Origin: Changchengzhania lutea
Lineage (GTDB): Bacteria; Bacteroidota; Bacteroidia; Flavobacteriales; Flavobacteriaceae
NCBI RefSeq assembly: GCF_006974145.1
Contig: NZ_CP039456.1
Coordinates: 3,534,499-3,598,498 of the forward strand
Direction: 5' to 3'
DNA: 64,000 bases
The position numbers and the translations under genes are program-made. Shown here in pieces: positions 51,961-64,000 of the stretch. The stretch's first letter is position 1; every line of letters begins with the position of its first letter. The notes under the pieces are model-generated. The model did no database searches. It was given only the letters and a program-made list of their open reading frames with translations, and was not told the DNA's origin.

Positions 51961-52431
51961 CTATAAAGCACTAAATATAATAAACCCATAAACGGCATAT
52001 CTTACAAGGCGCAAGGAACCATAAAGCACGACATTTTTAAAAGGAAATTCGATAATACCAGCAGTCATGCAGGCCATTGAAAATGGAAGTGGAAGAATCG
52101 CACCAACCATAATTAGGAAACCACCCCATTTTTTTGAATTTTTGAGTTGTTTTTGAAGTTTATTTACAATATAATCGTGGACCTTAGGTAAATTGGTAAT
52201 GTATATTCCAATCCAGTATGAAATTAAGCCACCCACGTAAGACAAAACAGCCAAGTAGCTAAGAAATAGCCAAGGAGAATTCATTTTACTAGACCAGGCG
52301 ATGAATATCTCTGGAGGAATAAGACCTAATACTATTTCAGAAACAAAAAAGAAAACTAAAACACCATAGCTAGGAAGCACTTCGGTAAGATGAACTAATG
52401 CTTTATTAATTCCGAAAAAATAATCGAGCAA
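51961..52431 (-). CDS. DedA/VTT-family membrane protein, 5' end probably lost
   Basis: 156 aa from a TTG start. LIPPEIFIAWSSKM and GAILPLPFSMACMTAGIIEFPF are VTT-domain motifs with the usual membrane helices. The frame remains open for 25 more codons (up to a TAA at 52507-52509), translating FDYTFVWGAVKKALPYITLF, which resembles the family N-terminus but has no ATG/GTG/TTG. The native start seems missing at about 52505, right where accessory sequence begins, so the gene may be truncated or use a weak start. Confidence 0.65.
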   Translation of the reverse strand: MLDYFFGINKALVHLTEVLPSYGVLVFFFVSEIVLGLIPPEIFIAWSSKMNSPWLFLSYLAVLSYVGGLISYWIGIYITNLPKVHDYIVNKLQKQLKNSKKWGGFLIMVGAILPLPFSMACMTAGIIEFPFKNVVLYGSLRLVRYAVYGFIIFSAL

Positions 52432-52534
52432 ATATATTGCGCCAACAAATAGCGTGATATAAGGAAGCGCCTTTTTAACAGCTCCCCAAACAAAGGTATA
52501 ATCAAATTACGGATTTAACGCTATTAAATAAATT

Positions 52535-52696
52535 ATGATAACATTCACACTTTGTGTTTTCCCAAATTACAATAAGGATGAATCTGAAGAGTTTAAGATT
52601 GAAGGGAAAGGAGATTTAGATATTGTTAATGAAAAAGATCCTAAAATTAAAAATCCATCTAAAATTGTTAATACTATTTTAGCAGAAGAATTTTGA
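52535..52696 (+). CDS. Short open frame (53 aa), possible gene remnant
   Basis: Starts ATGATAACATTC and ends TGA at 52694. The product is charged and low in complexity (ESEEFKIEGKGDLDIVNEKD...KNPSKIVNTILAEEF). No domain is recognised and nothing nearby supports expression. It could be the fragment of a gene lost when the island entered. Confidence 0.3.
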   Translation: MITFTLCVFPNYNKDESEEFKIEGKGDLDIVNEKDPKIKNPSKIVNTILAEEF

Positions 52697-52972
52697 TAAC
52701 TTATTTTTAGCTTCAATAACTGGCTTAATCATTCAGATCTAAAGAGTTGTAGTCTAAAGAGTTAAAAATATTCTATTTGACATAATATAAATTATAGTAC
52801 AAATGTATTGTTTAGTTAATAAGAGTGGTTATCCATTTGATAGCTATAATGTAGTATTATGTAAAATATCCCAGAAGCATTCGTTTTCATTAGAATAATT
52901 GGAACTTGGGTCATTAAACTATTAATCGGTTTGCTTCGCAGAGTTTTTTAAAACATTTGTATCTATAATTTG

Positions 52973-53507
52973 TTGTTATGTAAAATAGCCGCTACCAAGC
53001 GCTCGATTGTTTTATAAAATCAAATTGCTCTGGCAATTTATTTTACACACAATTATCCATCGCTTGCCAACGCCAAAATAAAAGCTAACCTTTTTGCGCT
53101 TATTAAAAATCGCGTATTCGATAAAATGTACGTAATAAAAAATTTTAAGCGATTCTCGTCAACTTGCCACAAGAGCATAAATTTTAAGAAAAATAAAATT
53201 CCATGCACTTGTTATATTTAATCTACTAATTGAAGTTTTCTTTTTAAAGTTTCATTGTCTTTTGTCTTGAAACAAAAGAAACAAAAATTCAAGGCTGCAT
53301 ATAATTTTGGAAACAATTAACGGTTCATTCGCTATATTTTAGGAAACATTGTAACTATTAACATTGCTTTGAAATCCCTTGTATAATTAAAACTCTAAAG
53401 AAACTGTATTACTAAACCCCTAAAATATACACGCTCACTTCACCTTATTGTTTTACCAAAATTTTATGAGGCCAAGGTAAACATCGAGGTTCTATTTTAC
53501 ATAACAA
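52973..53507. repeat. 16-bp inverted repeat enclosing ~500 nt of non-coding DNA
   Basis: TTGTTATGTAAAATAG (52973-52988) is perfectly inverted at 53492-53507. A third, imperfect inverse, TTTATTTTACACACAA, lies near 53038. The right arm ends 9 nt before the stop codon of the island's last gene. Could be a non-autonomous element or recombination site. Confidence 0.5.
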
Positions 53508-53515
53508 ATAAAATA

Positions 53516-55840
53516 TTAAGATGAAAAATCTGTAATTAAATCATGTCTAACATAAAATTCTTTTGTTCCTTCTGTAATATCAAAAAAGTCTATCAATTCA
53601 TGTATAACAGGTACAAAAATCCTGTTTTTAGTACGAATTGTTGTTGTAGGAACTGCAATTCCACCAGTAGATTCTGCACTTAACTTTTGCTTCAATTCTA
53701 TATCATAATATAACGATATTCTATTAGAAGCATGAGTAAATATATATACAATCCTATGCATTCCCCAAATAACTTTTGTTGTATGAGGTTCTAAAAAGAA
53801 ATCTAAATGTTTTTTAAATACTCTGTCAGAAATTCCAATAAACATTTTAAAATTATTCAAATGATCATAAGATTCGGCAGTTTTAAGTATTTTCATATTT
53901 GTAATATCATCCGACCTATCCAAAGAAGGTAATGCTCCGTAAATATCAAGTTTTGGTTTTTCTTCAGCAGAACTGGCAGCGGTTATACTTGGTACCTCTT
54001 GTTCTACGTTACCAATTTGGTTAAGACGAACAGATTGTGAATGCGTTCTTATTATGCTAGAAGATTGCTTTAATAATTCAGAAAATTCTATTTTTTCTGA
54101 AACCCATTCACTTATTAAAGATTCAACATCTCCTAAATCAGAATATTCATATTTATAGAGTTCTTTATTCTTCATCAAAATTTTATGTAATGCTTCGGCT
54201 CCTTGTCTTGTAGAAGACGGAACATATTGAGCAAATTTTTGATAAAGATGATTTCTAACAAAATCCTTTACAAATCCATTATAAATCTCATGTGCAGTCT
54301 CGTAAGCTTTCAAAACTTGTTGTACTGCTCCAGATTCTCTAGATAAGTATACTTCTAATGTTGACCCATTAATTTCTACCATACTTGGTACTTGATGGCT
54401 AATTTCTGCAATAAATACTTTGTTGTCCGGAATAAGGTAGTCATCACTCAATACATTAGTAATTCTTAAAATTAACGACGCTTCTGGAAGACTCAATTCT
54501 GTCCTATTAAATACTTTAAGCCTTCTTGGACTATCTGGTACTTCAGTTATGCCTTTTTGTTTGATTAATTTATTCTGTATATTTCTTCTAGGATTAGATT
54601 GACTTAAATGTATTAGGCTTGAGTTCTCATTTGCGAATGCTAATATTGTTTGTGGATCTCTACCACCATAAAAATATGTGTCTCTATCATGAATTTTTGT
54701 TGTTATTTCTTCAAGAGCTATCATTTCGTTAAATGGTTTAACCTCTACTTTAATTTTACCAGCTAAATCAAACCTATTAAACCTAGTAATATAGTTTAAG
54801 AAATTAGGATTTAAATCTGAACTTGACAATTTACTTAATTCTGTAGCAGTAATCTGTTCAATAACATTAATGATTTGAGTTACTATTGAAATACTTTCTC
54901 TGCTCAAAGCTTCTCTGCCAGCTGTTGGGTGTAAGATAGATAAGTTCACAATCCCACCAAAATTAAATATACTACTAACTGGGATTTGGGCAAGACCAAA
55001 ATAGTTTCTTAACCCCATAACGCTTCCTCTTCCTTGCAACAAAGAAATATCTCCCATTAAGGGCGTATTTTGAAACACTATTTTGTCTAATTTAATTGAT
55101 ACATATCCAGTTTTGTTAACTTCAATAATTAAATCACCAATTAAATTACCTTGATTTATTTTGCCTTTGTAAGTGTCTAAAATTGTTGTTTCTGGCAATC
55201 TAAATATTGATAAATATTCTTTTTGACTAGCAACTTTATTATTAATCAAAATAGGCACTTTTACATATTGTATGTAAGAACTTAAATAATTTAAAGCTCC
55301 TTGTTCATTCATAGAATTGCTATTGTCTAAAACGGCAATAACAGTTGTTCCTGGTTCTCTAGTTTCATCACTAGTTTTTATTTCAATACATTTTTCTGAT
55401 ATTGATAATGATTCTCTTTCTGCATAAGTTTCTATTGTCTCGTTACCTTCAATTGAATGCGTTATTACTCTTAATGAGGTGCAAACTCCAAAATTTGCCA
55501 TTGCCCCTATTCCAAAAGTTCCAACAACACCAGCTTTTTTTGCAGCTTCATTATTTTTACCACTAGAACCTGCTTTCCAAAAGTTATTTGCCACTACTTC
55601 TCTATCCATACCAATACCATTATCAGAAATTGTAACAATTCCATCTTTCAATGTAACTTCAATTTTTGGGATAAAACCTTCCGATGTATCAATTGCGATT
55701 CTCATCAAAATAGCATCATATGCATTTTGAATATTCTCTCTTAAAAGCGCATAGGGCGAATCATAAATATCATTGGATAAAATTTCCAATACTCTTTTTA
55801 TCTCAACCTGAAATGCTAGTTTATCAACTCCTTCACTCAT
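53516..55840 (-). CDS. Hsp90-like GHKL ATPase
   Basis: 774 aa. N-terminal Bergerat-fold ATPase: N box RENIQNAYDA (Glu35, Asn39, Asp42), G1 DNGIGM (73-78), and G2 GVVGTFGIGAMANF (about 104-117). A middle domain with HPTAGREALSRES recalls Hsp90's SRE catalytic-loop region. The C-terminal 250 residues (after about 520) are unfamiliar and end with a beta-rich part. The upstream phosphoesterase stop and this start share a base (TAATG), implying coupled expression and joint function. Not HtpG itself: the lid sequence and C-terminus differ. Confidence 0.8.
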   Translation of the reverse strand: MSEGVDKLAFQVEIKRVLEILSNDIYDSPYALLRENIQNAYDAILMRIAIDTSEGFIPKIEVTLKDGIVTISDNGIGMDREVVANNFWKAGSSGKNNEAAKKAGVVGTFGIGAMANFGVCTSLRVITHSIEGNETIETYAERESLSISEKCIEIKTSDETREPGTTVIAVLDNSNSMNEQGALNYLSSYIQYVKVPILINNKVASQKEYLSIFRLPETTILDTYKGKINQGNLIGDLIIEVNKTGYVSIKLDKIVFQNTPLMGDISLLQGRGSVMGLRNYFGLAQIPVSSIFNFGGIVNLSILHPTAGREALSRESISIVTQIINVIEQITATELSKLSSSDLNPNFLNYITRFNRFDLAGKIKVEVKPFNEMIALEEITTKIHDRDTYFYGGRDPQTILAFANENSSLIHLSQSNPRRNIQNKLIKQKGITEVPDSPRRLKVFNRTELSLPEASLILRITNVLSDDYLIPDNKVFIAEISHQVPSMVEINGSTLEVYLSRESGAVQQVLKAYETAHEIYNGFVKDFVRNHLYQKFAQYVPSSTRQGAEALHKILMKNKELYKYEYSDLGDVESLISEWVSEKIEFSELLKQSSSIIRTHSQSVRLNQIGNVEQEVPSITAASSAEEKPKLDIYGALPSLDRSDDITNMKILKTAESYDHLNNFKMFIGISDRVFKKHLDFFLEPHTTKVIWGMHRIVYIFTHASNRISLYYDIELKQKLSAESTGGIAVPTTTIRTKNRIFVPVIHELIDFFDITEGTKEFYVRHDLITDFSS

Positions 55841-57315
55841 TATATTAAGCTTTTAGCTTTATTTTTAGTAATAATTACACTTGGATCAGTAGAATTTTCT
55901 ATAATAGGCTGAACCAATAATTTACCGATAGTTACTCTATCCTTTAATTCAAATGCCGCATTCAAAACATGTATGGACTCTTCTTCATTTATTGGGTTAC
56001 TAAAATACTTCAATATTCCCGTGCTATCCTCCAATTCGACAAGGCACTTTAAAGTATATTTTCGAACAAAGACATCACTTGTATCTAATTTAGTAAGAAG
56101 GATTAAAGCATTCTCATAATTATTTTCTAAAACCAACGTATCTATTTCCGCTAATTTTTGATCCAAACTTGCACCTACTTTTTGATAATTTATTTTATAT
56201 TCAAAATAACTATTATTAGTATTATCAATATTACCTTTTGTCCAAACAGGTAATTCTAATGACGAAGCTGCTGTTTGTAATCTATTATGTATTACTACGT
56301 TAAGTTCTTTATCTAATTCTTCTATAGTGACAAAATTATATTGACGACTTTGGCCAACAGGTAATTCCCATTCACCTGCGCAAAGAGTACCTGTGCTAAA
56401 AATTAGCATTTTTTTCTCTTCTATAATATTTTTCTCTTCTCTAATAATCTCTGTCTTGTGTTGATGCCCATGAAAACCAAGTATAAAATTTGAATCAATA
56501 AGGTTTTTAATAAAACTATTTTCCATGTAATCATTGCAATAAGGTGTTCCTTTAGTGTTATGATGCCATACAGCTATTAATTTCCGATTCTGCTTTTTAT
56601 ATTTCCTAGAATTCATTATTGCATTGCCAATACATTCTGGATGTATAGCGCCAGCCTTATTTAAATGGTCATTATTGTAACAACTATTGAAACCAACAAT
56701 TGCAATATTAAATTTGGGTATGTCAAATATGTCAAATTGCTCATTTGGTCGTAAAGAGTAACTTCTATTCCCTTCATAAAATCTTGAGTAAAAATCACAA
56801 AATGCTTTTAACCGATTAGCATATAATTCAATATCAGTAACTTCGTAAAAGCTTAAATCATCCCAATTCCATTTGATATTTGAATGAGTATTTATTGAAT
56901 CTTCAAGAACAGACGATTTTACATTTCCAGTTTCATTAAGGACATTTGCAGTCTCAACCTTCTCCATACTCTCTTTTGATATACTCCAGGATACATCATG
57001 ATTTCCTGGTATAATAATGATGCGACTTTTATCGCCATCAAGGAGCTTATTGGTAATACTATTCAAAAACTCAAATGCTTCATTATATTGTTCATTTATT
57101 TCATCATTAGAAGCATCAGCATCAATATGATGTGATCCGCGAATAATATCGCCACTTACAATAATAATATCTGGTTTTTTAATTGATGGAGTCTCTCCTT
57201 TTATTCTATCAATATCAATAATTAAAGAAGAAAGAAGTGCTGCGTTATTTAATGGGTTTGCCCTACTTCTATGCAAATCTGATAAGTGCAATATTGATAC
57301 AATTTCATTATTCAT
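55840..57315 (-). CDS. Calcineurin-like metallophosphoesterase with C-terminal extension
   Basis: 491 aa. Motifs for two-metal binding: SDLHRS (Asp13, His15), VSGDII (Asp56), PGNHDV (Asn105, His106), WHHN (about 249) and GFHGHQHKTE (about 285). The last about 170 residues look helical (DTLVLENNYENALILLTKL...), resembling a repeat domain. Could be a nuclease, phosphatase or nucleotide hydrolase. Tightly coupled to the Hsp90-like ATPase gene; 118 nt from the upstream GHKL gene, where a weak promoter could lie. Confidence 0.83.
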   Translation of the reverse strand: MNNEIVSILHLSDLHRSRANPLNNAALLSSLIIDIDRIKGETPSIKKPDIIIVSGDIIRGSHHIDADASNDEINEQYNEAFEFLNSITNKLLDGDKSRIIIIPGNHDVSWSISKESMEKVETANVLNETGNVKSSVLEDSINTHSNIKWNWDDLSFYEVTDIELYANRLKAFCDFYSRFYEGNRSYSLRPNEQFDIFDIPKFNIAIVGFNSCYNNDHLNKAGAIHPECIGNAIMNSRKYKKQNRKLIAVWHHNTKGTPYCNDYMENSFIKNLIDSNFILGFHGHQHKTEIIREEKNIIEEKKMLIFSTGTLCAGEWELPVGQSRQYNFVTIEELDKELNVVIHNRLQTAASSLELPVWTKGNIDNTNNSYFEYKINYQKVGASLDQKLAEIDTLVLENNYENALILLTKLDTSDVFVRKYTLKCLVELEDSTGILKYFSNPINEEESIHVLNAAFELKDRVTIGKLLVQPIIENSTDPSVIITKNKAKSLI

Positions 57316-57433
57316 TTAAGGCTATCTTATTGTTTATAATCCTTCTACTTAAAACAGAGTTTAAATTTACAAAATATTGTAGGAATTATTTTAGGTCAAA
57401 ACCGTAAAATAAATAGAATACTTTTTTAAATAA

Positions 57434-59836
57434 TTATTCAACAAAAGCATGCTTCTCCATTTGATAATTTTCATAAAGTAAAAAGTTAGCATATGGTTTG
57501 ATTAAATTTGAAACAAAATCTTCCATCTCAATTTCATTCAGCTTCTTGTCATCCTTCTGCATTTTTTGCATAATACTAAATAAGAATAATGAATGTAAGT
57601 ATATAGATAGAAAGTACTTATCTTTTATAAATTTTATTTCTTTTTCCGTTTTTATACTATTCTTTGATATGAAATTTAACAATACATAGGAGTCCATGTT
57701 AATTATTATACCTTCAACAACCATTTCATTATTATCTTCACTTCTAATAACTTTCACAATATCATGACCATTCCATTTCAAGTTATCATTATCCCATGAT
57801 AAACTATTCTCGTCTGTTGGTTTTTTATAAGCTTTTTTTGGCGTTGGAAGATTAGGAAAGGTTTCAGTTGCTTTCTTTTCTTTTGTTTTTGGCTTACTTA
57901 TTTTCTCATCAACTTTAACATTAAAAATGCATTCAAAATCTTGACCTGGAGCACTTAATTTGGCTTTTATTTCTACTTCATCTCCAATTTGAGCTTGTTC
58001 ATTCGGTTTAATTAACAGTTTAATTGTTCCATCTGTTGGACCTTCTTTATTTATTGTTAGAATATCAGTAACATCATTTGGAAAAAGGTTTAAAACTGGG
58101 TTCACTGGAATATCTGTTTTCTTTTTCTTTTGTAAAACTTGAATTTCAAATTTGCCCTTTTCTACTGGTCTAAATAAGTAATCATCTTCAACATCGGTTT
58201 CAATTGTGATGTTCCCATTAGAATTTAAAGGTATTGTTTTGTAAATTTTACCATTTTTTTGTTCCTTTAAATTAAGTTTAAAAATTGATGGGAACCTATC
58301 TAGTTTCCTTTGAACATCTTTTTTCGATTGTTGTTTACCATTAACTTTACTCCCACTTAATTTTAGAAAATCTAAAGACCCATTCTTTTTTAATAAGTTG
58401 ACAACATCTTTGTCTACTGGTAAATTTGATAAAAATGTTTCTAGTAAATCTTTGTCAGTTTTACTATCTCTTAATAAAGAATCTTTACGTTCATTATTCA
58501 GCTTTCTTAATTCTGTACTGGATTTTAAAAGAGATACGATTTCACTTTTCAAAGTTTCAGTTTTTGGACCCTCGCGTAAATGAGTTCTGTTTGACATGAA
58601 AAGATCTTGTCTAATTTCCGTTGGAATATTAGTGCAATCAACATGTACTAGAGTGTGTTTTTTAATTAATGGAAATCCTAAATCTTGTGAAATAAAGGAT
58701 TGACCTCCAAATCCATGAACTTGTCCGTTTTGAGTGTAAATAATGGATTTGTTTTTTATAAACTCTCTATGATCTACATTTGAATTGAAAATAATAACAT
58801 CTATTGGGATACTAAAGTTTCCTAAACTTGAATTTAAATCAAATCGAATATTCTTTTCTACATTTTCCTTCGCGTTATTGACTATTCTAGTTCTGTTTCC
58901 AACTACAACTTTATTTACATTTTTTACTTTATAATGCTCTCTTTTTTCATAGACCGTAATTGGTATTGGTAAATGATATAAATACTGATTCAAATCTCTA
59001 TATAAATCTGTAGATATATCTCCTTTAGAACCGGTAGGTAACTGATAAGAATACATTTTTACAATGGTTCCGAACTGAAAATTTCTATTTAATAAACCAA
59101 GGTCTAAAGTATCAATAGAAAAAGAAGCTATATTTTGATCTGGGCAAAAGTATTCATACCAAGTAGTTGTGACATTATTATCGATATCGTAATTATCTAA
59201 TGGGTGTCTTCTAACAAGTGTAAAACCGAATTCATTAGCATTTCCATTACATAAATTGCTATCTCTTTTTGAACCTATAAGTTGATATTTTTTTTCACCA
59301 CAAAAAACAACTGCTCCAGTTGAACCCATATTGTATTTTCCTTGTACAAAATGAATATTGGCTTTATTACCTCTATGTAAAGAAAGGAATGTGTTTTCAA
59401 ACTCTTTTGGGACTTGACCTTCTCCAGCATCATATATCAAAATCGATGGTGTTTTTTGGTCTCCGGAAGCTATAATTTGAATATTTTCAGCTAGTTCTCT
59501 TCTTTTAACTGGACCTAATTCACTTATTTCTCCATTGGGTACTTGATAGAACTTCTCAACAGCTTCTATCATTGTTTTTGGTGCTTCTTTAGATTTTGGA
59601 TCAATGCCAGAAATTCTACATTCTTTTATTAATGTAGCATCAATTGAATTTGTGATTTTTTCAACTAAAGCAGGTATGGCATTATTTTGTTGTGCTTCAA
59701 AGGTTCCGAAATTCCCTTCAATACCACCATATGGTTTCCAATTATTTCTATCTTTAAAAATCGCTTTACTATTAATTATTGTAGTTAGTTCATCTTCTGA
59801 ATTAGCATTGAAAATTCTCCAAAAAAGTTCTTTCAT
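57434..59836 (-). CDS. GHKL (MutL/MORC-like) ATPase of a restriction-modification island
   Basis: 800 aa. N-terminal ATPase: N box EKITNSIDA (Glu59, Asn63, Asp66), G1 IYDAGEG (136-140), G2 GKYNMGSTG (166-174). The middle part has SGSKVNGKQQ and then long Lys/Glu-rich stretches; the C-terminus is helical. GHKL ATPases related to MutL and MORC are known partners of prokaryotic R-M systems (Iyer, Abhiman and Aravind 2008), and this one sits with a C5 methylase and a MutH-fold nuclease. It follows a 76-aa gene by 9 nt. It may move or load the nuclease on DNA; that is inference. Confidence 0.8.
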   Translation of the reverse strand: MKELFWRIFNANSEDELTTIINSKAIFKDRNNWKPYGGIEGNFGTFEAQQNNAIPALVEKITNSIDATLIKECRISGIDPKSKEAPKTMIEAVEKFYQVPNGEISELGPVKRRELAENIQIIASGDQKTPSILIYDAGEGQVPKEFENTFLSLHRGNKANIHFVQGKYNMGSTGAVVFCGEKKYQLIGSKRDSNLCNGNANEFGFTLVRRHPLDNYDIDNNVTTTWYEYFCPDQNIASFSIDTLDLGLLNRNFQFGTIVKMYSYQLPTGSKGDISTDLYRDLNQYLYHLPIPITVYEKREHYKVKNVNKVVVGNRTRIVNNAKENVEKNIRFDLNSSLGNFSIPIDVIIFNSNVDHREFIKNKSIIYTQNGQVHGFGGQSFISQDLGFPLIKKHTLVHVDCTNIPTEIRQDLFMSNRTHLREGPKTETLKSEIVSLLKSSTELRKLNNERKDSLLRDSKTDKDLLETFLSNLPVDKDVVNLLKKNGSLDFLKLSGSKVNGKQQSKKDVQRKLDRFPSIFKLNLKEQKNGKIYKTIPLNSNGNITIETDVEDDYLFRPVEKGKFEIQVLQKKKKTDIPVNPVLNLFPNDVTDILTINKEGPTDGTIKLLIKPNEQAQIGDEVEIKAKLSAPGQDFECIFNVKVDEKISKPKTKEKKATETFPNLPTPKKAYKKPTDENSLSWDNDNLKWNGHDIVKVIRSEDNNEMVVEGIIINMDSYVLLNFISKNSIKTEKEIKFIKDKYFLSIYLHSLFLFSIMQKMQKDDKKLNEIEMEDFVSNLIKPYANFLLYENYQMEKHAFVE

Positions 59837-59845
59837 AATTATACC

Positions 59846-60076
59846 CTAAAATTTAAATTCATTATTTTTCCCTTTATCAAGCTCTTTATTAAAAGATTTC
59901 AATACATCACTTACTTTATCTCTTAAAGCTTTTTCCATTTTCCTTATATCATTCGAATTATATTCATAATTGTTTTTATTTGAGCATTTTTCTAGACTTT
60001 CTAGTCCTTTTAATATGTTAGCGACTCTATTTGCCGCTACTTTTTCAAATCTTGCTCTTCTAGGAGAATCTTTCAT
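59846..60076 (-). CDS. Small helical protein paired with the GHKL ATPase
   Basis: 76 aa, strongly basic N-terminal RRARFEKVAANRVANILKGLE followed by EKCSNKNNYEYNSNDIRKMEKALRDKV. The RFEKVA..RV..IL...E.L..CSN..NYEY pattern recalls a small family I have seen near mobile and R-M genes, but I cannot name it. Helical and possibly DNA-binding. It begins just downstream of a palindrome that could be its own operator. Confidence 0.65.
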   Translation of the reverse strand: MKDSPRRARFEKVAANRVANILKGLESLEKCSNKNNYEYNSNDIRKMEKALRDKVSDVLKSFNKELDKGKNNEFKF

Positions 60077-60141
60077 TATACTATATAATTATATTACGAG
60101 TCATCCAAAATACTACATAATTATTAGATATGCAACTTATT

Positions 60142-60169
60142 ATACTATATTTTATGAAATATAGTATAC
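60142..60169. promoter_or_regulatory. Perfect 12-bp palindrome in the island's internal gap
   Basis: TATACTATATTT, spacer TATG, AAATATAGTATA: 12 of 12 pairs. It lies 65 nt upstream of the 76-aa gene's start, in the only non-coding gap (198 nt) of the island. TATACTATA-like half sites recur at 60078-60086, next to the start codon. Probable operator; a short hairpin in RNA is the alternative. Confidence 0.6.
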
Positions 60170-60274
60170 AAACAAGTGTGTTTGTGTTCGTTTTGTTCTA
60201 TTGTAATGAACTCTCAAGAGCAGATGCGTATTGAGTTTTTATTAAAATTATATGATAGTTTTGTATATAATACT

Positions 60275-60994
60275 CTATCTAGTAAGATTCCTTGCTGAAC
60301 TATTCATTTCAACTCCCCAAGGGAAAATTCTAGTTGCGAAGTAAGCAATTGGCATAGCTGCACCTAATTGAGTTGTTTTAGATTCATCTTTCCTAATTAT
60401 TCTAGAAAACCACCTATCTCCTCTATTTGATTCTTCACAGATCAAAAGTCCAGCAAATGTGAAAGCCAAAACTATTGCAGGTATTTCTCCTTTTGAAGTT
60501 TGCAATGGCTGATAAGATGAATTATTATTTAGTGGAAAAAAATTATTAATAACCTTTATTAGTTCATCAAAAATCAAATCTATAGTAGTTGGTGTAATTC
60601 CTGTATGAACAGTTTTTCCTGCCAAAGTAGAAACGTCTGGCACATTACCGAGAGTATTAAATGATAGACTTGAAAAGAAAGGTAATAAACCAAAATTTCT
60701 TGAGGAGGACCAATTAATTAGTGCATCAATTATATCTTTGTGAGAAGGTGCTCCTATTAAAATACCATTATTTCTTAATTCTAACAGTAAATCATGTTCA
60801 TGTTCAACATGCGTATCACATAAGCCCGAAGTTCTATTGATTCTTATCGGATTACTACATCCATCTATCTTACAAGTCCTATCGTTTGCCAAAAAATTTA
60901 ATTTATTTGGATTAGGCTTGTTTCTTCCAGCGGTTCCATTATCCAATATTCTAATTTCCCAACCAGAAATTGGTCTATTTACAGTAATAATCAT
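60275..60994 (-). CDS. Zinc-knuckle protein of unknown function in the R-M operon
   Basis: 239 aa. Cys41-x4-Cys46-x12-Cys59-x2-His62 (CKIDGCSNPIRINRTSGLCDTH) resembles the small zinc knuckle often found beside HNH domains, but no HNH motif is visible. The rest has mixed helices with a hydrophobic segment near 178-196 (EIPAIVLAFTFAGLLI). It overlaps the endonuclease gene by ATGA, so it belongs to the same operon and could be an accessory DNA-recognition factor. Unknown function. Confidence 0.7.
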   Translation of the reverse strand: MIITVNRPISGWEIRILDNGTAGRNKPNPNKLNFLANDRTCKIDGCSNPIRINRTSGLCDTHVEHEHDLLLELRNNGILIGAPSHKDIIDALINWSSSRNFGLLPFFSSLSFNTLGNVPDVSTLAGKTVHTGITPTTIDLIFDELIKVINNFFPLNNNSSYQPLQTSKGEIPAIVLAFTFAGLLICEESNRGDRWFSRIIRKDESKTTQLGAAMPIAYFATRIFPWGVEMNSSARNLTR

Positions 60995-62424
60995 TTACTT
61001 ATTTGTTTTAGAATGTATCTACTATTAAGCCAATAACATTTCTTTTTTTCTAATGTCCCTTGTGGTGTTTCCATCAAATCTTTTGCATTTACTCCTTTTG
61101 GTCTTACATGGCATATTTTATGATCTTTTAATTTCCAGAAATTATCATAATTACCATTTTGAATGTTTGTTTTAGTGTGCTTCCAAAACTTTTCTGCTAT
61201 TTCTAAATCTTTAGTAGACATTGTCCAAAACATTACTTTTTTAAGTCTCGCAATGTTCTTTTCATCTTTCTGAAATACTACAAAGAAAAAGCGTTTTGTG
61301 AGTTTATTATACCAATAAGATTCTTCCCAGACTTCATTGATGATTTCTTTATACTTTATCTGTGCAAAAGACATACTTTCTTTTAAAGTTCCTGTTGCTT
61401 CAAGCTTAATAGTTTTTAATTCTATTTCCGCTTTTTCAAATTCTTCAATTTTGTCTTTATTAATTCCCAAAATAGATTTTGCAAACACATAATTTTTATT
61501 CTTTGCTCTTAAATTAATTTCGAGCTTAAAATGATCTATTAATTGTTGCTCTGAATAACCATAATATTTAGAAAATTTTTCTATAATGACATCTTCAAAA
61601 GTTTGACCTTTTTTGTAGTCAGATATATCCTTAATTATTGCTTCGTGGTCATCAAATAAGTTTCCATAGCCAGTTTTAGGTTCTTTGAAGACATCACTAT
61701 CATCTTCTAAAAACTGTAGATATTCATTGTCTAACTTCGTTAAATTATAATCTCCTTTCAAGCTTTTGGAAATAATAAAATTTAGATACTTTGATTTTAA
61801 GGAAAATGCTCTTTGTTGTGCTTTCTTATTCGAAAACGGTTGAGTTCTTTTTGATTTTGCTGCTGTAGAACCTTTTGTGCAAGCACCAAGATATAATGTG
61901 TCTCCTTCGGAGATTTCATGAGCTTTACCTGATTTAATTTTACTAACAATAGTAATCCAATCGTCTTTTATAATTTTTAAGTCTGTTAGAGGAAAACGCC
62001 AAAGTCTAGCGATTTTAAAAATGTAATCAATATCTATTTTATCATTTTCATATAAATAAAAAAGCAGAAGTAAAAGACTGTTTTTTTTCCAAAAGCTACT
62101 TTCTCTAAAAGTATATTTATACTCCTCATTAAAGTCTATAATGTTGAAAACTAATCGCTCTTTAGAAACAAGCCCTTTTGAGTTTTTTTTTATTGGAGTT
62201 GTTTTTAATTCAACACCAGCTTCTGGAAAATCAGGTTCAGGATTGGAGTTTGGTTTATATCCAAAATATAAGAATTCGACTAACTGTCCTAGTTTTCCTT
62301 TTCCAGAATATGCATTTTCTAAATCTTTGCCGTATAAATTTCTTAATGATTTATTTAATAATCCTTTGGCATAATTTTCAATTGATATAGGATCTTTTTT
62401 ATCGTATGGTAATTCTTTATGCAA
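60991..62424 (-). CDS. Sau3AI/MutH-type restriction endonuclease
   Basis: 477 aa, close to the length of Sau3AI. GKGKLGQLVEFLYFG has catalytic Glu50, and PDFPEAGVELKTTP gives Asp65-x6-Glu72-x-Lys74, the same D-x6-E-x-K spacing as MutH. A second MutH-like half occupies about 250-477, as in Sau3AI, where the C-terminal copy is an allosteric DNA-binding domain. Sau3AI cuts GATC; this relative may as well, but specificity is not proven. It overlaps the methylase gene by 8 nt. Confidence 0.88.
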   Translation of the reverse strand: MHKELPYDKKDPISIENYAKGLLNKSLRNLYGKDLENAYSGKGKLGQLVEFLYFGYKPNSNPEPDFPEAGVELKTTPIKKNSKGLVSKERLVFNIIDFNEEYKYTFRESSFWKKNSLLLLLFYLYENDKIDIDYIFKIARLWRFPLTDLKIIKDDWITIVSKIKSGKAHEISEGDTLYLGACTKGSTAAKSKRTQPFSNKKAQQRAFSLKSKYLNFIISKSLKGDYNLTKLDNEYLQFLEDDSDVFKEPKTGYGNLFDDHEAIIKDISDYKKGQTFEDVIIEKFSKYYGYSEQQLIDHFKLEINLRAKNKNYVFAKSILGINKDKIEEFEKAEIELKTIKLEATGTLKESMSFAQIKYKEIINEVWEESYWYNKLTKRFFFVVFQKDEKNIARLKKVMFWTMSTKDLEIAEKFWKHTKTNIQNGNYDNFWKLKDHKICHVRPKGVNAKDLMETPQGTLEKKKCYWLNSRYILKQISK

Positions 62425-63706
62425 ATTGCTCTTGGTTTACATCTACGTTAATTCTTTCGCTTAATTCTTCTCCTAATTTTCTAACTATTCCAACAACTAG
62501 TGCATTTCCCATAAAAAAAGCTCTTTTAGTGTCTGTTATTCCATCTAATTCAGTGTGGTTATCTGGAAACATGTTTAGACGCTCAAGCTCTTTTGGTGTC
62601 AGTCTTCTTAATCTTCCATTTTGTTCTACAACATGCTTAAATCTAGATGGAGACTTCCCTCCTTCTCCAGTTATTATTGTTCTAGAAGCATTATCCAATG
62701 CATCCGGAAAAATCATTCTTCCTTCACCATAATTATATTCAAAACCTTCTCTAGTCCTTCTTATCTCCTTTTTTGCTCCTTTTAGATAATTCCAACCTCT
62801 AGGCCTATGTATATCTTCATTTTCTATAAAAAATTCTTCGGGAACTTCTTCTGTATTAATTAACTTACTACCAAGAGTTTGCTTTAGTCCATTATAATAT
62901 GGTTTAGTTTTTACAGTAATAAACTCTCCATTAATCATTAAACCACAATTCTCAAATGGACTATTTTTTTCTCCTAAATTAAATTCTTCTGAAATATTAA
63001 TTAAATCACCTTCTACATTACCTCTTTTGATTTGTTCACTTATCTCGCGAACTGGAAAAGCAGTTGCGATGATTCCATCAGAATCTAACCAATCTTCTCT
63101 GTTTTCAGTTTCTAAAATTCTATTATATATTTCAGTATCGTTACGATAAGCTAAAAAGAAAACTCTTCTTCGTCTTTGTGGCATTCCATATTCTGCAGCA
63201 TTTATAACTCTCCATTCTACTGCATAACCAAGGTTATTTAAGGAAGCTAACATAACTGCAAAATCTCTACCTCTTTGTTTTGATGGAGACTTTAGTAGTC
63301 TATCAACATTCTCTAGCATAAGATATCGTGGTCTATTTTCTGCTTTTCTGCGTAATATAGCTTCAATACTCCACCATAAAACTCCTTTTTTTCCAATTAA
63401 ACCTTTAGAGTTTTTTAAAGTTGTTGCAACAGAATAATCTTGACAAGGAAATCCACCAACTAATAAATCATGATTTGGTATCTCATCAAATTTGTTTTCT
63501 ATTACATCTTCAATGTTTTCACCACAATGATTTGCATTTGGCCAACGATTCTCATATACCATATTTGCGTGTTGCGTTTTGGTACTCGGTTCCCATTGGT
63601 TACTCCATACAACATTATAATTAGCGTCATCTCTTCTTGGATACCCTTCTAACCCTATTCTAAATCCTCCTACTCCAGCAAAAAGTTCAACAACTCTAAT
63701 TGGCAT
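62417..63706 (-). CDS. DNA cytosine-5 methyltransferase
   Basis: 429 aa C5-MTase with all main motifs: I VVELFAGVGGFRIGL (5-19), IV GGFPCQDYSVA (catalytic Cys88), VI LENVDRLL (131-138), VIII PQRRRRVFFLA (176-186), IX RLTPKELERLNMFP, X FFMGNALVVGIV. The target-recognition domain is about 190-330. First gene of the R-M operon and partner of the MutH-fold endonuclease. If the pair recognises GATC the product is GAT(m5)C. Much lower GC than the host genes suggests transfer. Confidence 0.93.
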   Translation of the reverse strand: MPIRVVELFAGVGGFRIGLEGYPRRDDANYNVVWSNQWEPSTKTQHANMVYENRWPNANHCGENIEDVIENKFDEIPNHDLLVGGFPCQDYSVATTLKNSKGLIGKKGVLWWSIEAILRRKAENRPRYLMLENVDRLLKSPSKQRGRDFAVMLASLNNLGYAVEWRVINAAEYGMPQRRRRVFFLAYRNDTEIYNRILETENREDWLDSDGIIATAFPVREISEQIKRGNVEGDLINISEEFNLGEKNSPFENCGLMINGEFITVKTKPYYNGLKQTLGSKLINTEEVPEEFFIENEDIHRPRGWNYLKGAKKEIRRTREGFEYNYGEGRMIFPDALDNASRTIITGEGGKSPSRFKHVVEQNGRLRRLTPKELERLNMFPDNHTELDGITDTKRAFFMGNALVVGIVRKLGEELSERINVDVNQEQFA

Positions 63707-64000
63707 ATATTAATAATCTTTAATGTGAATTATAAAAAAATAAAAATATCATATTTAATCCTAATAAGTAAGGTTTTCGAATTAATTTGATTAAGTATTT
63801 TTCAACAATTTAAATATTAATCCATTTCACACACATTACGCTTCCCTCCTACGTCGTCGCATAAAAAGTGTTCCATTAACTTTAGTAGAAGAAACTTTTA
63901 GATATAAATTTTTTGAAGAAACTATAGAAATACTTTCGCTTTTAGCCAAAGCTCAAGTTACATAACACGGAACATTATAGTACAAAGTTGATTATCAATG
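63707..64000. other. Upstream region of the R-M operon
   Basis: No gene with a start codon. It should hold the methylase promoter on the minus strand. On the + strand an open stretch ending TAA near 63960 reads ...LTLVEETFRYKFFEETIEIL..., possibly a gene fragment without start. ATTATAGTACAAA (63974-63986) also occurs at 52791-52803, on the far side of the island. Confidence 0.45.

What the first reader, a model, noticed from the sequence alone, without database searches (positions are those of the whole stretch)
53516..63706. Candidate undescribed defence system: Sau3AI-like R-M with two GHKL ATPases, a phosphoesterase and small helper proteins
Seven genes on one strand: C5 methylase (62417-63706), MutH/Sau3AI endonuclease (60991-62424), zinc-knuckle protein (60275-60994), 76-aa helical protein (59846-60076), 800-aa MutL/MORC-like ATPase (57434-59836), calcineurin-like phosphoesterase (55840-57315) and Hsp90-like ATPase (53516-55840). 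Gene overlaps (8 nt, ATGA, TAATG) tie the first three together and the last two together. Known: GHKL ATPases occur with R-M genes (Iyer, Abhiman and Aravind 2008). Inference: the ATPases sense or process invading or cut DNA, and the phosphoesterase/Hsp90-like pair adds a second effector. I do not know of this combination being described.
Basis: partly seen in the sequence, partly recalled or inferred. Interest (0 to 1): 0.85.

Follow-up and report, generated by a model that had tools for sequence, protein, structure and literature searches.

The report
Defence island with Hsp90–phosphoesterase gene pair
The seven genes are real but are not one system: they look like three defence modules collected on a foreign island, one of them an ordinary restriction enzyme set and one a rare, travelling gene pair that joins an Hsp90-type chaperone ATPase to a phosphate-cutting enzyme, which may be an undescribed bacterial immune system.

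Summary
All seven genes and overlaps are confirmed. A single seven-gene system is not supported; relatives resolve it into modules. (A) 60275-63706: Sau3AI-family R-M (known kind) plus a 239-aa gene of unknown role. (B) 57434-60076: a 76-aa protein plus an 800-aa GHKL ATPase. In 20 relatives the ATPase lies near SspBCD phosphorothioation genes in 8 and beside a DNA methylase in 4, never with Sau3AI-type genes or module C. (C) 53516-57315: metallophosphoesterase (MPE) plus Hsp90-like ATPase. MPE lies directly before the ATPase in 12 of 12 relatives with upstream DNA; the genes overlap by 0-13 nt and co-evolve in 11 pairs (r=0.895, 0 of 10,000 permutations). None of the 12 shows A or B. One pair lies inside a Mu-like phage, one on another phage contig, four near ABC-3C/Lamassu-like, PtuA-like or AbiD genes. 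Catalytic residues checked are invariant; a predicted model follows Hsp90 NTD-MD-CTD. Seven full-text searches gave no description of the pair. Best reading: acquired island with one probably new two-gene defence module, an Hsp90-type ATPase switch controlling a phosphoesterase effector. Antiphage function is inferred, not tested.

The parts
53516..55840 (-). Module C, gene 2: Hsp90-like ATPase, 774 aa (GHKL NTD, middle domain with the Hsp90-type catalytic Arg R309, CTD-like region to about 560, extra conserved C-terminal domain about 600-774)
   Evidence: PDB Hsp90s, best E 2e-20; model, mean pLDDT 81; full-length TRAP1/Hsp90 rows, Z about 20-24, residues 11 to about 560; 11 of 11 keep E35, N39, D73, G75, G77, G107, G110, G112, G164, T165, R309
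55840..57315 (-). Module C, gene 1: calcineurin-like metallophosphoesterase, 491 aa; C-terminal tail 379-491 possibly TPR-like (weak)
   Evidence: DS9_1_antiphage 58.4 bits, below its cut-off of 420; D13, H15, D56, N105, H106, D107, H251, H252, H284, H286 in 11 of 11; tail, weak
57434..59836 (-). Module B, gene 2: 800-aa GHKL ATPase (MORC/Hsp90-like NTD plus S5-type domain, residues about 38-457)
   Evidence: model, mean pLDDT 74; Hsp90, Morc3 and others, Z about 15-20; neighbours
59846..60076 (-). Module B, gene 1: 76-aa small protein, 9 nt before the GHKL gene
   Evidence: Homologue directly upstream of a GHKL800 relative in L118, L174 and L175; upstream of other GHKL-like ORFs, recognised by motif only, in L215, L217 and L218
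60275..60994 (-). Module A, gene 3: 239-aa protein with a CxxxxC...CxxH motif, coupled to the endonuclease gene by a 4-nt overlap
   Evidence: no family; relatives almost absent (2 of 375 genomes, own included, the other a weak match to residues 18-82)
60991..62424 (-). Module A, gene 2: Sau3AI-family endonuclease (two MutH-type stretches), TTG start
   Evidence: NF040973 453.7 bits over a cut-off of 300
62417..63706 (-). Module A, gene 1: C5-cytosine DNA methyltransferase
   Evidence: a relative adjoins the Sau3AI-like gene in 3 of 4 relatives and lies about 1.2 kb away, in pieces, in the fourth
52749..53507 (.). Left edge: non-coding repeat ending 9 nt before the Hsp90-like stop codon; 91% identical to the equivalent place in relative G399. 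In two further own copies a group II intron lies between its two halves
   Evidence: no Rfam hit in this stretch itself
63809..63986 (.). Right edge: repeat with similar stretches elsewhere in the own chromosome and in relatives (G410, G412)

Best explanation
The stretch is an acquired defence island that holds three separable modules. A is a Sau3AI-type restriction-modification operon (methylase, MutH-type endonuclease, small coupled 239-aa protein). B is a two-gene unit, a 76-aa protein plus an 800-aa GHKL ATPase clamp of a family that often lives next to DNA-modification systems; here it may assist module A. C is an independent two-gene system: a binuclear-metal phosphoesterase and an Hsp90-family ATPase. 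Proposed working of C: the Hsp90-like dimer binds and holds the phosphoesterase; a phage cue acting on the chaperone clamp (a phage client protein, or a change of nucleotides) drives ATP-dependent closing and opening that activates or releases the phosphoesterase, which then cuts a phosphodiester or phosphate essential to phage growth or cell survival. Shown by computation: the pair, its tight coupling, conserved catalytic residues in both proteins, co-evolution, Hsp90 architecture (predicted model), defence or phage surroundings in half of the relatives, absence from three relatives at the same site. Inferred: physical complex, gating, substrate, trigger, antiphage activity.
For: Modules: MPE directly upstream of the Hsp90-like gene in 12 of 12 relatives with upstream DNA, none of which shows A or B; GHKL800 in 20 relatives with no Sau3AI-type or C genes; Sau3AI-like with a C5 methylase in 4 of 4 and nothing of B or C. 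Start and stop overlap by 0-13 nt in 11 of 11, and Mantel r=0.895 with 0 of 10,000 permutations reaching it. Ten probable MPE active-site positions and eleven GHKL/Hsp90 positions invariant in 11 of 11; R309 falls on the HtpG catalytic-Arg loop by profile alignment. Hsp90 N-M-C architecture in the model. Defence context: L154 lies in a Mu-like phage with Portal_Mu, terminase, Gam, GemA and Mu transposase; L167 on a phage contig; L020 and L022 by ABC-3C/LmuA and DUF3732 genes, L024 by patatin and PtuA-like genes, L026 by AbiD. Same phosphoesterase class tied to other switches: metallophosphoesterase-NACHT-FGE proteins in 3 of 3 ORFs scanned from the same phylum, and a WD40-Roc-metallophosphoesterase protein in Nostoc; experimentally antiphage DS-8 (MPP-NACHT) and DS-9 (MPP plus HAD) (PMC13092281). 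Island: lower GC than the near flank and absence in three relatives with the same flank.
Against: No experiment. Defence or phage surroundings were seen in 6 of 12 pair relatives; L019, L023 and L027 show none in the gene lists I read (L023 and L027 were not family-scanned), L021 and L025 are too short and L153 was not family-scanned; no control count with random genes was made. The pair is rare (among 395 genomes of the window's phylum only the own one had a full-length MPE match). The DS9_1 model is matched at 58 bits against an equivalog cut-off of 420. A and B may act together, and the whole 10 kb is on one strand, so one long transcript is possible; the promoter-like matches in the gaps (for example 60104-60075 and 60281-60252 before the 76-aa gene) are no more than chance in number (63 against 59.1, sd 7.1) and no terminator-like site falls in the gaps.
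Confidence: 0.66

Rival explanations
1. One reading: all seven genes form one integrated system, R-M cutting plus two ATPases and a phosphoesterase as second effector.
For: One strand, short gaps, overlaps within two groups; GHKL proteins with R-M genes are known (PMC2292703) and the GHKL800 family does sit near DNA modification genes.
Against: No relative of any module shows the others within the DNA held: 0 of 12 pair loci, 0 of 20 GHKL800 loci, 0 of 4 Sau3AI loci.
Confidence: 0.07
2. Modules A and B form one R-M system of the paraMORC kind (methylase, Sau3AI-type endonuclease, 239-aa protein, 76-aa protein, GHKL clamp), and C is a separate neighbour.
For: p76-GHKL units occur beside methylases: L118 (N6/N4 methylase downstream), L174 (N6/N4) and L175 (C5 methylase and Vsr) for GHKL800, and with other GHKL-like ORFs near C5 methylase and Vsr in L217 and L218. 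Published association of GHKL ATPases with R-M (PMC2292703, PMC8011034).
Against: No Sau3AI-type gene in any of 20 GHKL800 loci; 198-nt gap between A and B; in 8 of 20 the GHKL is near SspBCD instead; no SFII helicase among the seven genes.
Confidence: 0.4
3. The MPE/Hsp90-like pair is a phage or plasmid maintenance or toxin-antitoxin unit (MPE toxic, Hsp90-like its keeper), not antiphage defence.
For: Carried on a Mu-like phage, another phage contig and large conjugative plasmids; enzyme plus tightly coupled partner.
Against: Gene order is effector first and the partner is a 770-aa ATPase, unusual for antitoxins (recalled); neighbours include defence genes in four relatives. A toxin-keeper pair could still be an abortive-infection system, so the two readings overlap.
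Confidence: 0.2
4. The pair is a stress or nucleotide-signalling module, a specialised chaperone maturing a metabolic phosphoesterase.
For: Hsp90 family normally matures client enzymes (recalled); the host has a separate ordinary HtpG.
Against: Patchy spread over Bacteroidota, alpha- and gammaproteobacteria, partly on phages and plasmids; no third gene family is shared by three or more of the 14 loci compared, window included.
Confidence: 0.1

Closest known systems
DS-8 and DS-9 (DefensePredictor, PMC13092281; passages read)
   Same: Defence metallophosphatase essential for protection (mutants lose defence); the window MPE hits the DS9_1 NCBIfam model at 58.4 bits; metallophosphoesterase-NACHT proteins are also relatives of the window MPE.
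   Different: DS-8 combines MPP with NACHT in one protein, DS-9 pairs MPP with a HAD phosphatase; here the partner is an Hsp90-family ATPase, and the match is far below the equivalog cut-off (420 bits).
Hsp90/HtpG chaperones
   Same: N-M-C order, GHKL motifs, catalytic Arg loop.
   Different: Extra conserved C-terminal domain about 600-774, linked to a phosphoesterase gene, mobile; the ordinary HtpG is elsewhere in the genome. NCBIfam HSP90 cut-offs are not reached.
MORC/paraMORC R-M systems (Iyer, Abhiman and Aravind 2008, PMC2292703; abstract and sections 4 and 5 read)
   Same: GHKL plus S5-type ATPase next to DNA methylases, sometimes with Vsr (module B and relatives).
   Different: No SFII helicase; Sau3AI/MutH-type endonuclease as neighbour; a 76-aa partner; in relatives frequently near SspBCD.
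Sau3AI type II R-M
   Same: Module A: NF040973 equivalog passed, adjacent C5 methylase.
   Different: An extra coupled 239-aa gene not seen near the four other loci.
Ssp phosphorothioation systems (search listing with abstract starts only)
   Same: Relatives of module B lie within 10 kb of SspB, SspC or SspD in 8 of 20 loci.
   Different: No Ssp gene among the seven window genes.
PP5-Hsp90 (recalled; PDB titles 8gae and 8gft appear)
   Same: A calcineurin-fold phosphatase that works on an Hsp90 platform.
   Different: Only an analogy: different phosphatase subclass; the TPR-like tail here is weakly supported.

Membership tests
Sau3AI type II R-M (module A) | Sau3AI equivalog endonuclease | tested here: met
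   NF040973 453.7 bits, cut-off 300
Sau3AI type II R-M (module A) | Adjacent C5 methyltransferase | tested here: met
   62417-63706, 8-nt overlap
Sau3AI type II R-M (module A) | GATC specificity | not testable with these tools
   GATC is depleted in the window (0.62 of expected) but similarly in relatives (0.64, 0.67, 0.64, 0.87 and 0.49 in five stretches), so not diagnostic
MORC/paraMORC R-M (module B) | GHKL ATPase plus S5-type domain | tested here: met
   Predicted model matches Hsp90, MORC and other GHKL ATPase modules over residues 38 to about 457, Z about 15-20; sequence hit below Pfam cut-off
MORC/paraMORC R-M (module B) | Linked DNA methylase or endonuclease | tested here: met
   Window: Sau3AI-like and C5 methylase genes 1.1-3.9 kb away; relatives: methylase beside it in 4 of 20, Ssp genes in 8 of 20
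MORC/paraMORC R-M (module B) | SFII helicase (about 70% of MORC neighbourhoods in the paper) | tested here: not met
   None among the seven genes
MORC family proper | GhXhhpXXRhl motif in the S5 domain | not tested
   Motif read in PMC2292703, not searched for
Hsp90 family (module C ATPase) | GHKL ATP-binding motifs and catalytic Arg of the middle domain | tested here: met
   Invariant in 11 of 11; R309 aligned to the HtpG arginine loop, in a part of low alignment confidence
Hsp90 family (module C ATPase) | N-M-C architecture | tested here: met
   Predicted model aligned over residues 11 to about 560 to full-length TRAP1/Hsp90, Z about 20-24, rmsd 7-10 over about 460-500 residues
HtpG (orthologue) | NCBIfam equivalog cut-off | tested here: not met
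   HtpG 64.1 bits (cut-off 371), PRK14083 93.9 (cut-off 455)
DS-9 | DS9_1 phosphoesterase equivalog | tested here: not met
   58.4 bits, cut-off 420
DS-9 | HAD phosphatase partner | tested here: not met
   Partner is Hsp90-like
DS-8 | NACHT in the same protein as the metallophosphatase | tested here: not met
   No NACHT in the MPE
Ssp phosphorothioation system | SspBCD genes present | tested here: not met
   No Ssp family hit among the seven genes (for the methylase the best 25 of 64 families were shown)
Tiamat (TmtA) | TmtA protein | tested here: inconclusive
   17.3 bits in PADLOC over residues 13-119 only

The most novel reading that the evidence does not exclude
Module C is an undescribed class of bacterial immunity in which a dedicated, mobile Hsp90-family chaperone ATPase is itself the infection sensor or switch that holds and then releases a phosphoesterase effector: a bacterial counterpart, in principle, of Hsp90-dependent control of immune receptors in eukaryotes and of Hsp90-phosphatase (PP5) pairs. 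It is spread by phages (one Mu-like) and conjugative plasmids, and its phosphoesterase is exchangeable with NACHT- and Roc-gated versions.
Probability: 0.35. Interest if true: 0.85.

Novelty: new variant of a known kind. Interest (0 to 1): 0.6.

Why it matters
Defence phosphoesterases with unknown substrates (DS-8, DS-9) have just been reported; a further, tightly coupled version gated by an Hsp90-type clamp gives a two-protein, clonable handle on how such enzymes are switched on. A chaperone ATPase dedicated to one effector would extend the link between chaperones and immunity (DnaJ-bNACHT25 and the Hsp90-NLR work cited there, PMC12169576, passages read) to a case where the chaperone is part of the system. 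Separately, the 76-aa/GHKL unit and its link to SspBCD and methylases gives a testable partner for phosphorothioation and R-M systems.

Tried and rejected
Single seven-gene system: rejected on neighbourhood counts. Homologues of the 239-aa protein: none on plasmids or viral contigs, 2 of 375 genomes including the own one, so its role stays open. GATC depletion as proof of Sau3AI specificity: rejected, relatives are depleted too. Promoter and terminator scans: numbers no more than chance (63 promoter-like against 59.1, 3 terminator-like against 2.6); a Bacteroidetes-type promoter pattern (recalled consensus) no more than chance (8 against 6.45). Rfam on 52000-64000: nothing, so I do not call the left repeat a group II intron; in two other own copies Rfam-confirmed introns lie between its halves. 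TPR reading of the MPE tail: weak only (best PDB E 0.013; ANAPC3 in 2 of 10 members, best 1.5e-4, window member none). PDB by sequence for GHKL800: nothing up to E 1. MPE in the phage collection: none; the Hsp90-like protein there has 16 matching records, none covering 80% (10 listed, among them htpG and rIIA genes). Dropped before counts: L168 and L169 (cut at the contig end before the MPE position), L165 and L166 (same contigs as L154 and L153), L176 (partial GHKL), a 19-bit Sau3AI match in G372, a 21.7-bit p76 match in G031. Kept although imperfect: L021's MPE is split in two ORFs and L025's Hsp90-like gene runs off its contig (both in the 12 of 12, not in the 11 used for co-evolution); L114's GHKL is short, with an in-frame stop, and L173's is near a contig end. 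A fourth relative fetched for the insertion site (L192) does not keep the flank and says nothing. For L019 the plasmid annotation shows three small pieces although one open frame of 490 aa is present. Fold tables: a family not listed there is not excluded. Literature: (15 of 678 papers listed), 60, 61, 69, 103 and 115 on Hsp90 or phosphoesterase in defence, 11 (R-M plus GHKL, 20 of 27 listed) and 114 (Ssp plus GHKL, 10 of 15 listed) showed no paper describing the pair; one search was on Sau3AI; PMC12839542 was searched for GHKL, MORC, Hsp90, calcineurin and MutL and holds none of them. Supplementary tables, preprints not in PMC and most subscription papers were not searchable.


Full report
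What is there. Family scans agree with the naming: C5 methylase, Sau3AI-family endonuclease (NF040973, 453.7 bits over a cut-off of 300), Metallophos, HATPase_c_3 for the 774-aa protein; the 800-aa protein is below the Pfam cut-off, the 76-aa and 239-aa proteins have no convincing family. The block is GC-poor (0.28-0.32) against 0.35-0.38 at 46-52 kb; two windows at 41.5-44.5 kb are also at 0.32, so GC alone is a modest argument. Three relatives (G399, G410, G412) keep the left flank (leuA, leuB, MscS-like, a small gene, a DedA-like gene; names from my reading) and then carry other genes: in the 12.6-14 kb read beyond that flank no ORF matches the seven. A repeat at 52749-53507 ends 9 nt before the last gene; it is 91% identical to the same place in G399. 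Its halves recur at two places further along the own chromosome, in both cases on either side of a group II intron. So the stretch is a variable, acquired island.

Module C: the pair travels alone. Twelve relatives have DNA upstream of the Hsp90-like gene: L019, L020, L021, L022, L023, L024, L025, L026, L027, L153, L154 and L167. In 12 of 12 an MPE relative is the gene directly before it; two viral loci cut at the contig end (L168, L169) cannot be judged. None of the 12 shows the methylase, endonuclease, 239-aa, 76-aa or 800-aa protein; held DNA is short in L021 (5.2 kb in all) and L025 (4.2 kb). Hosts named in the records: Rhizobium, Oceanibaculum, a Rhodospirillaceae bin, Pseudomonas aeruginosa (plasmid), Methylobacter, a Bacteroidales bin, a Paludibacteraceae bin and a Prevotellaceae bin; the three viral contigs are unnamed.

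Module C: why I think it is one functional unit. Across 11 complete pairs the stop and start overlap by 0 to 13 nt, 4 nt in 7 of them. Pairwise distances of the two proteins correlate at r=0.895; 0 of 10,000 permutations reach that (this shows co-inheritance, without correction for species history). In those 11, the probable MPE active-site positions D13, H15, D56, N105, H106, D107, H251, H252, H284 and H286 (assigned from recalled calcineurin-fold motifs) and the Hsp90-like positions E35, N39, D73, G75, G77, G107, G110, G112, G164, T165 and R309 are all invariant; R314 is kept in 10 of 11. A profile alignment against 30 HtpG-type proteins gives E 9.6e-23, with R309 in the place of the arginine loop of HtpG; the alignment is of high confidence only in the N-terminal part. 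The predicted model (mean pLDDT 81) aligns to full-length TRAP1 and Hsp90 over residues 11 to about 560 with Z about 20-24, rmsd 7-10 over about 460-500 residues; the last 170 residues are an additional conserved domain that I could not test alone. The ordinary HtpG of this genome lies elsewhere.

Module C: why defence. L154 sits in a Mu-like phage: Portal_Mu, terminase, Gam, GemA, an AAA protein and Mu transposase are encoded on the other strand around it. L167 is on a contig with phage portal and DUF2213 genes. L022 is followed by ABC-3C CTD7 (PADLOC LmuA 194.6 bits) and DUF3732 genes, L020 has a three-component ABC set 3-7 kb upstream, L024 is beside a patatin-like and a PtuA-like gene (780.3 bits), L026 has AbiD 2.5 kb upstream. 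That is 6 of 12; L019, L023 and L027 showed nothing of this kind in the annotation or gene lists I read, L021 and L025 are too short, L153 was not family-scanned. I made no control count with random genes. The same phosphoesterase class also occurs with NACHT and FGE-sulfatase domains in one protein: 5 such loci of the 23 genomes were fetched, each with an ORF of about 1180 aa, and 3 of 3 scanned have Metallophos, NACHT and FGE-sulfatase; in Nostoc it is joined to WD40 and Roc. DS-8 (MPP-NACHT) and DS-9 (MPP plus HAD) are experimentally antiphage and lose activity when the phosphatase site is mutated (PMC13092281, passages read). The window MPE reaches the DS9_1 model at 58.4 bits, far below its cut-off of 420: related, not the same system.

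Proposed mechanism for C. MPE is the effector, the Hsp90-like ATPase its holder and switch. This follows by analogy from metallophosphoesterase-NACHT proteins, where an ATPase switch accompanies the same kind of enzyme, and from Hsp90 biology (recalled), where ATP-driven clamp closure changes the state of bound clients. The MPE tail 379-491 is weakly TPR-like, a possible contact. Complex, trigger and substrate are inferences. My rough probabilities: separate modules 0.85; C is antiphage 0.7; ATPase gates MPE 0.45.

Module B. GHKL800 was found in 10 of 395 genomes including the own one, on 5 plasmids and in 7 viral loci; 20 loci were used for the neighbour table, L176 being left out as partial. 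SspB, SspC or SspD relatives lie within 10 kb in 8 (L014, L015, L016, L110-L114; identified by PADLOC in L110, and by tblastn with the L110 proteins elsewhere). A DNA methylase is next to it in 4 (N6/N4 type in L118, L172, L174; C5 type plus Vsr in L175; Pfam for the first three, C5 and Vsr in L175 from motifs and similarity, with the Vsr family confirmed by Pfam only in L217); in L171 a D12-type methylase lies 2 kb away. In 7 of 20 I saw neither. None shows a Sau3AI-type gene, the pair or the 239-aa gene. The 76-aa protein has relatives directly upstream of GHKL800 in L118, L174 and L175. A wider search found it in 7 of 385 genomes including the own one (one match of 21.7 bits dropped): besides the own genome and G154 (L118), in L215, L217 and L218 it precedes other GHKL-like ORFs recognised by motif only (no Pfam hit), in L217 and L218 near a C5 methylase and Vsr; in L216 no such ORF was seen. 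Of 5 viral loci, two are the contigs of L174 and L175 again, L212 ends just after the gene, and L213 and L214 have no such ATPase nearby. The fold model (mean pLDDT 74) matches Hsp90, MORC, topoisomerase VI and MutL ATPase modules, Z about 15-20. I read B as a modification-linked clamp of the MORC/paraMORC kind (PMC2292703, abstract and sections 4 and 5; PMC8011034, abstract and section 8). Whether it works with module A here is open (0.4).

Module A. Six of 395 genomes including the own one have a Sau3AI-like match, one of them a 19-bit fragment; in the four others a C5 methylase relative adjoins (3) or lies about 1.2 kb away in pieces (L121), and none has the 239-aa gene or modules B or C in about 9 kb on each side. 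It is an ordinary type II R-M with an extra small gene.

Comparison and verdict. I found no paper that describes an MPE/Hsp90-like defence pair, with the limits of that library (no supplements, few preprints) and of the listings. The pair is best filed as a probable new variant among metallophosphatase defence systems; if the Hsp90-like protein proves to be the sensor or switch it would be a new principle.

Noticed in passing
L002 13193-16345 (own chromosome, beyond the methylase; window end is L002 10498): Genes for virion structural proteins and an endolysin (PHROGs 20547, 20088, 19410, 21890): a phage-like element beside the island.
   Followed up: partly
L002 17154-19309 and L003 8619-9757: Two group II intron copies (Rfam RF02012 and RF00029), the first with a reverse transcriptase ORF at L002 17691-19196; each seems to sit between the two halves of the repeat found whole at window 52749-53507.
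   Followed up: partly
   Followed up: partly
L118 2757-8819: Apparent operon p76, GHKL800, N6/N4 methylase, a 262-aa gene and a second HATPase_c_3 gene; resembles the response-regulator-like and paraMORC pairs of PMC8011034, though the 262-aa protein had no Pfam hit.
   Followed up: partly
L217 3016-9353 and L218 1754-7380: Vsr, C5 methylase, p76 and a GHKL-like ORF without Pfam hit form a recurring set.
   Followed up: partly
   Followed up: partly
L213 5983-6213 and L214 5983-6213: Relatives of the 76-aa protein on contigs of the viral collection, without a GHKL gene nearby.
   Followed up: no
L021 570-2029: The MPE gene is split into two ORFs in this metagenome contig (true break or assembly error).
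   Followed up: no
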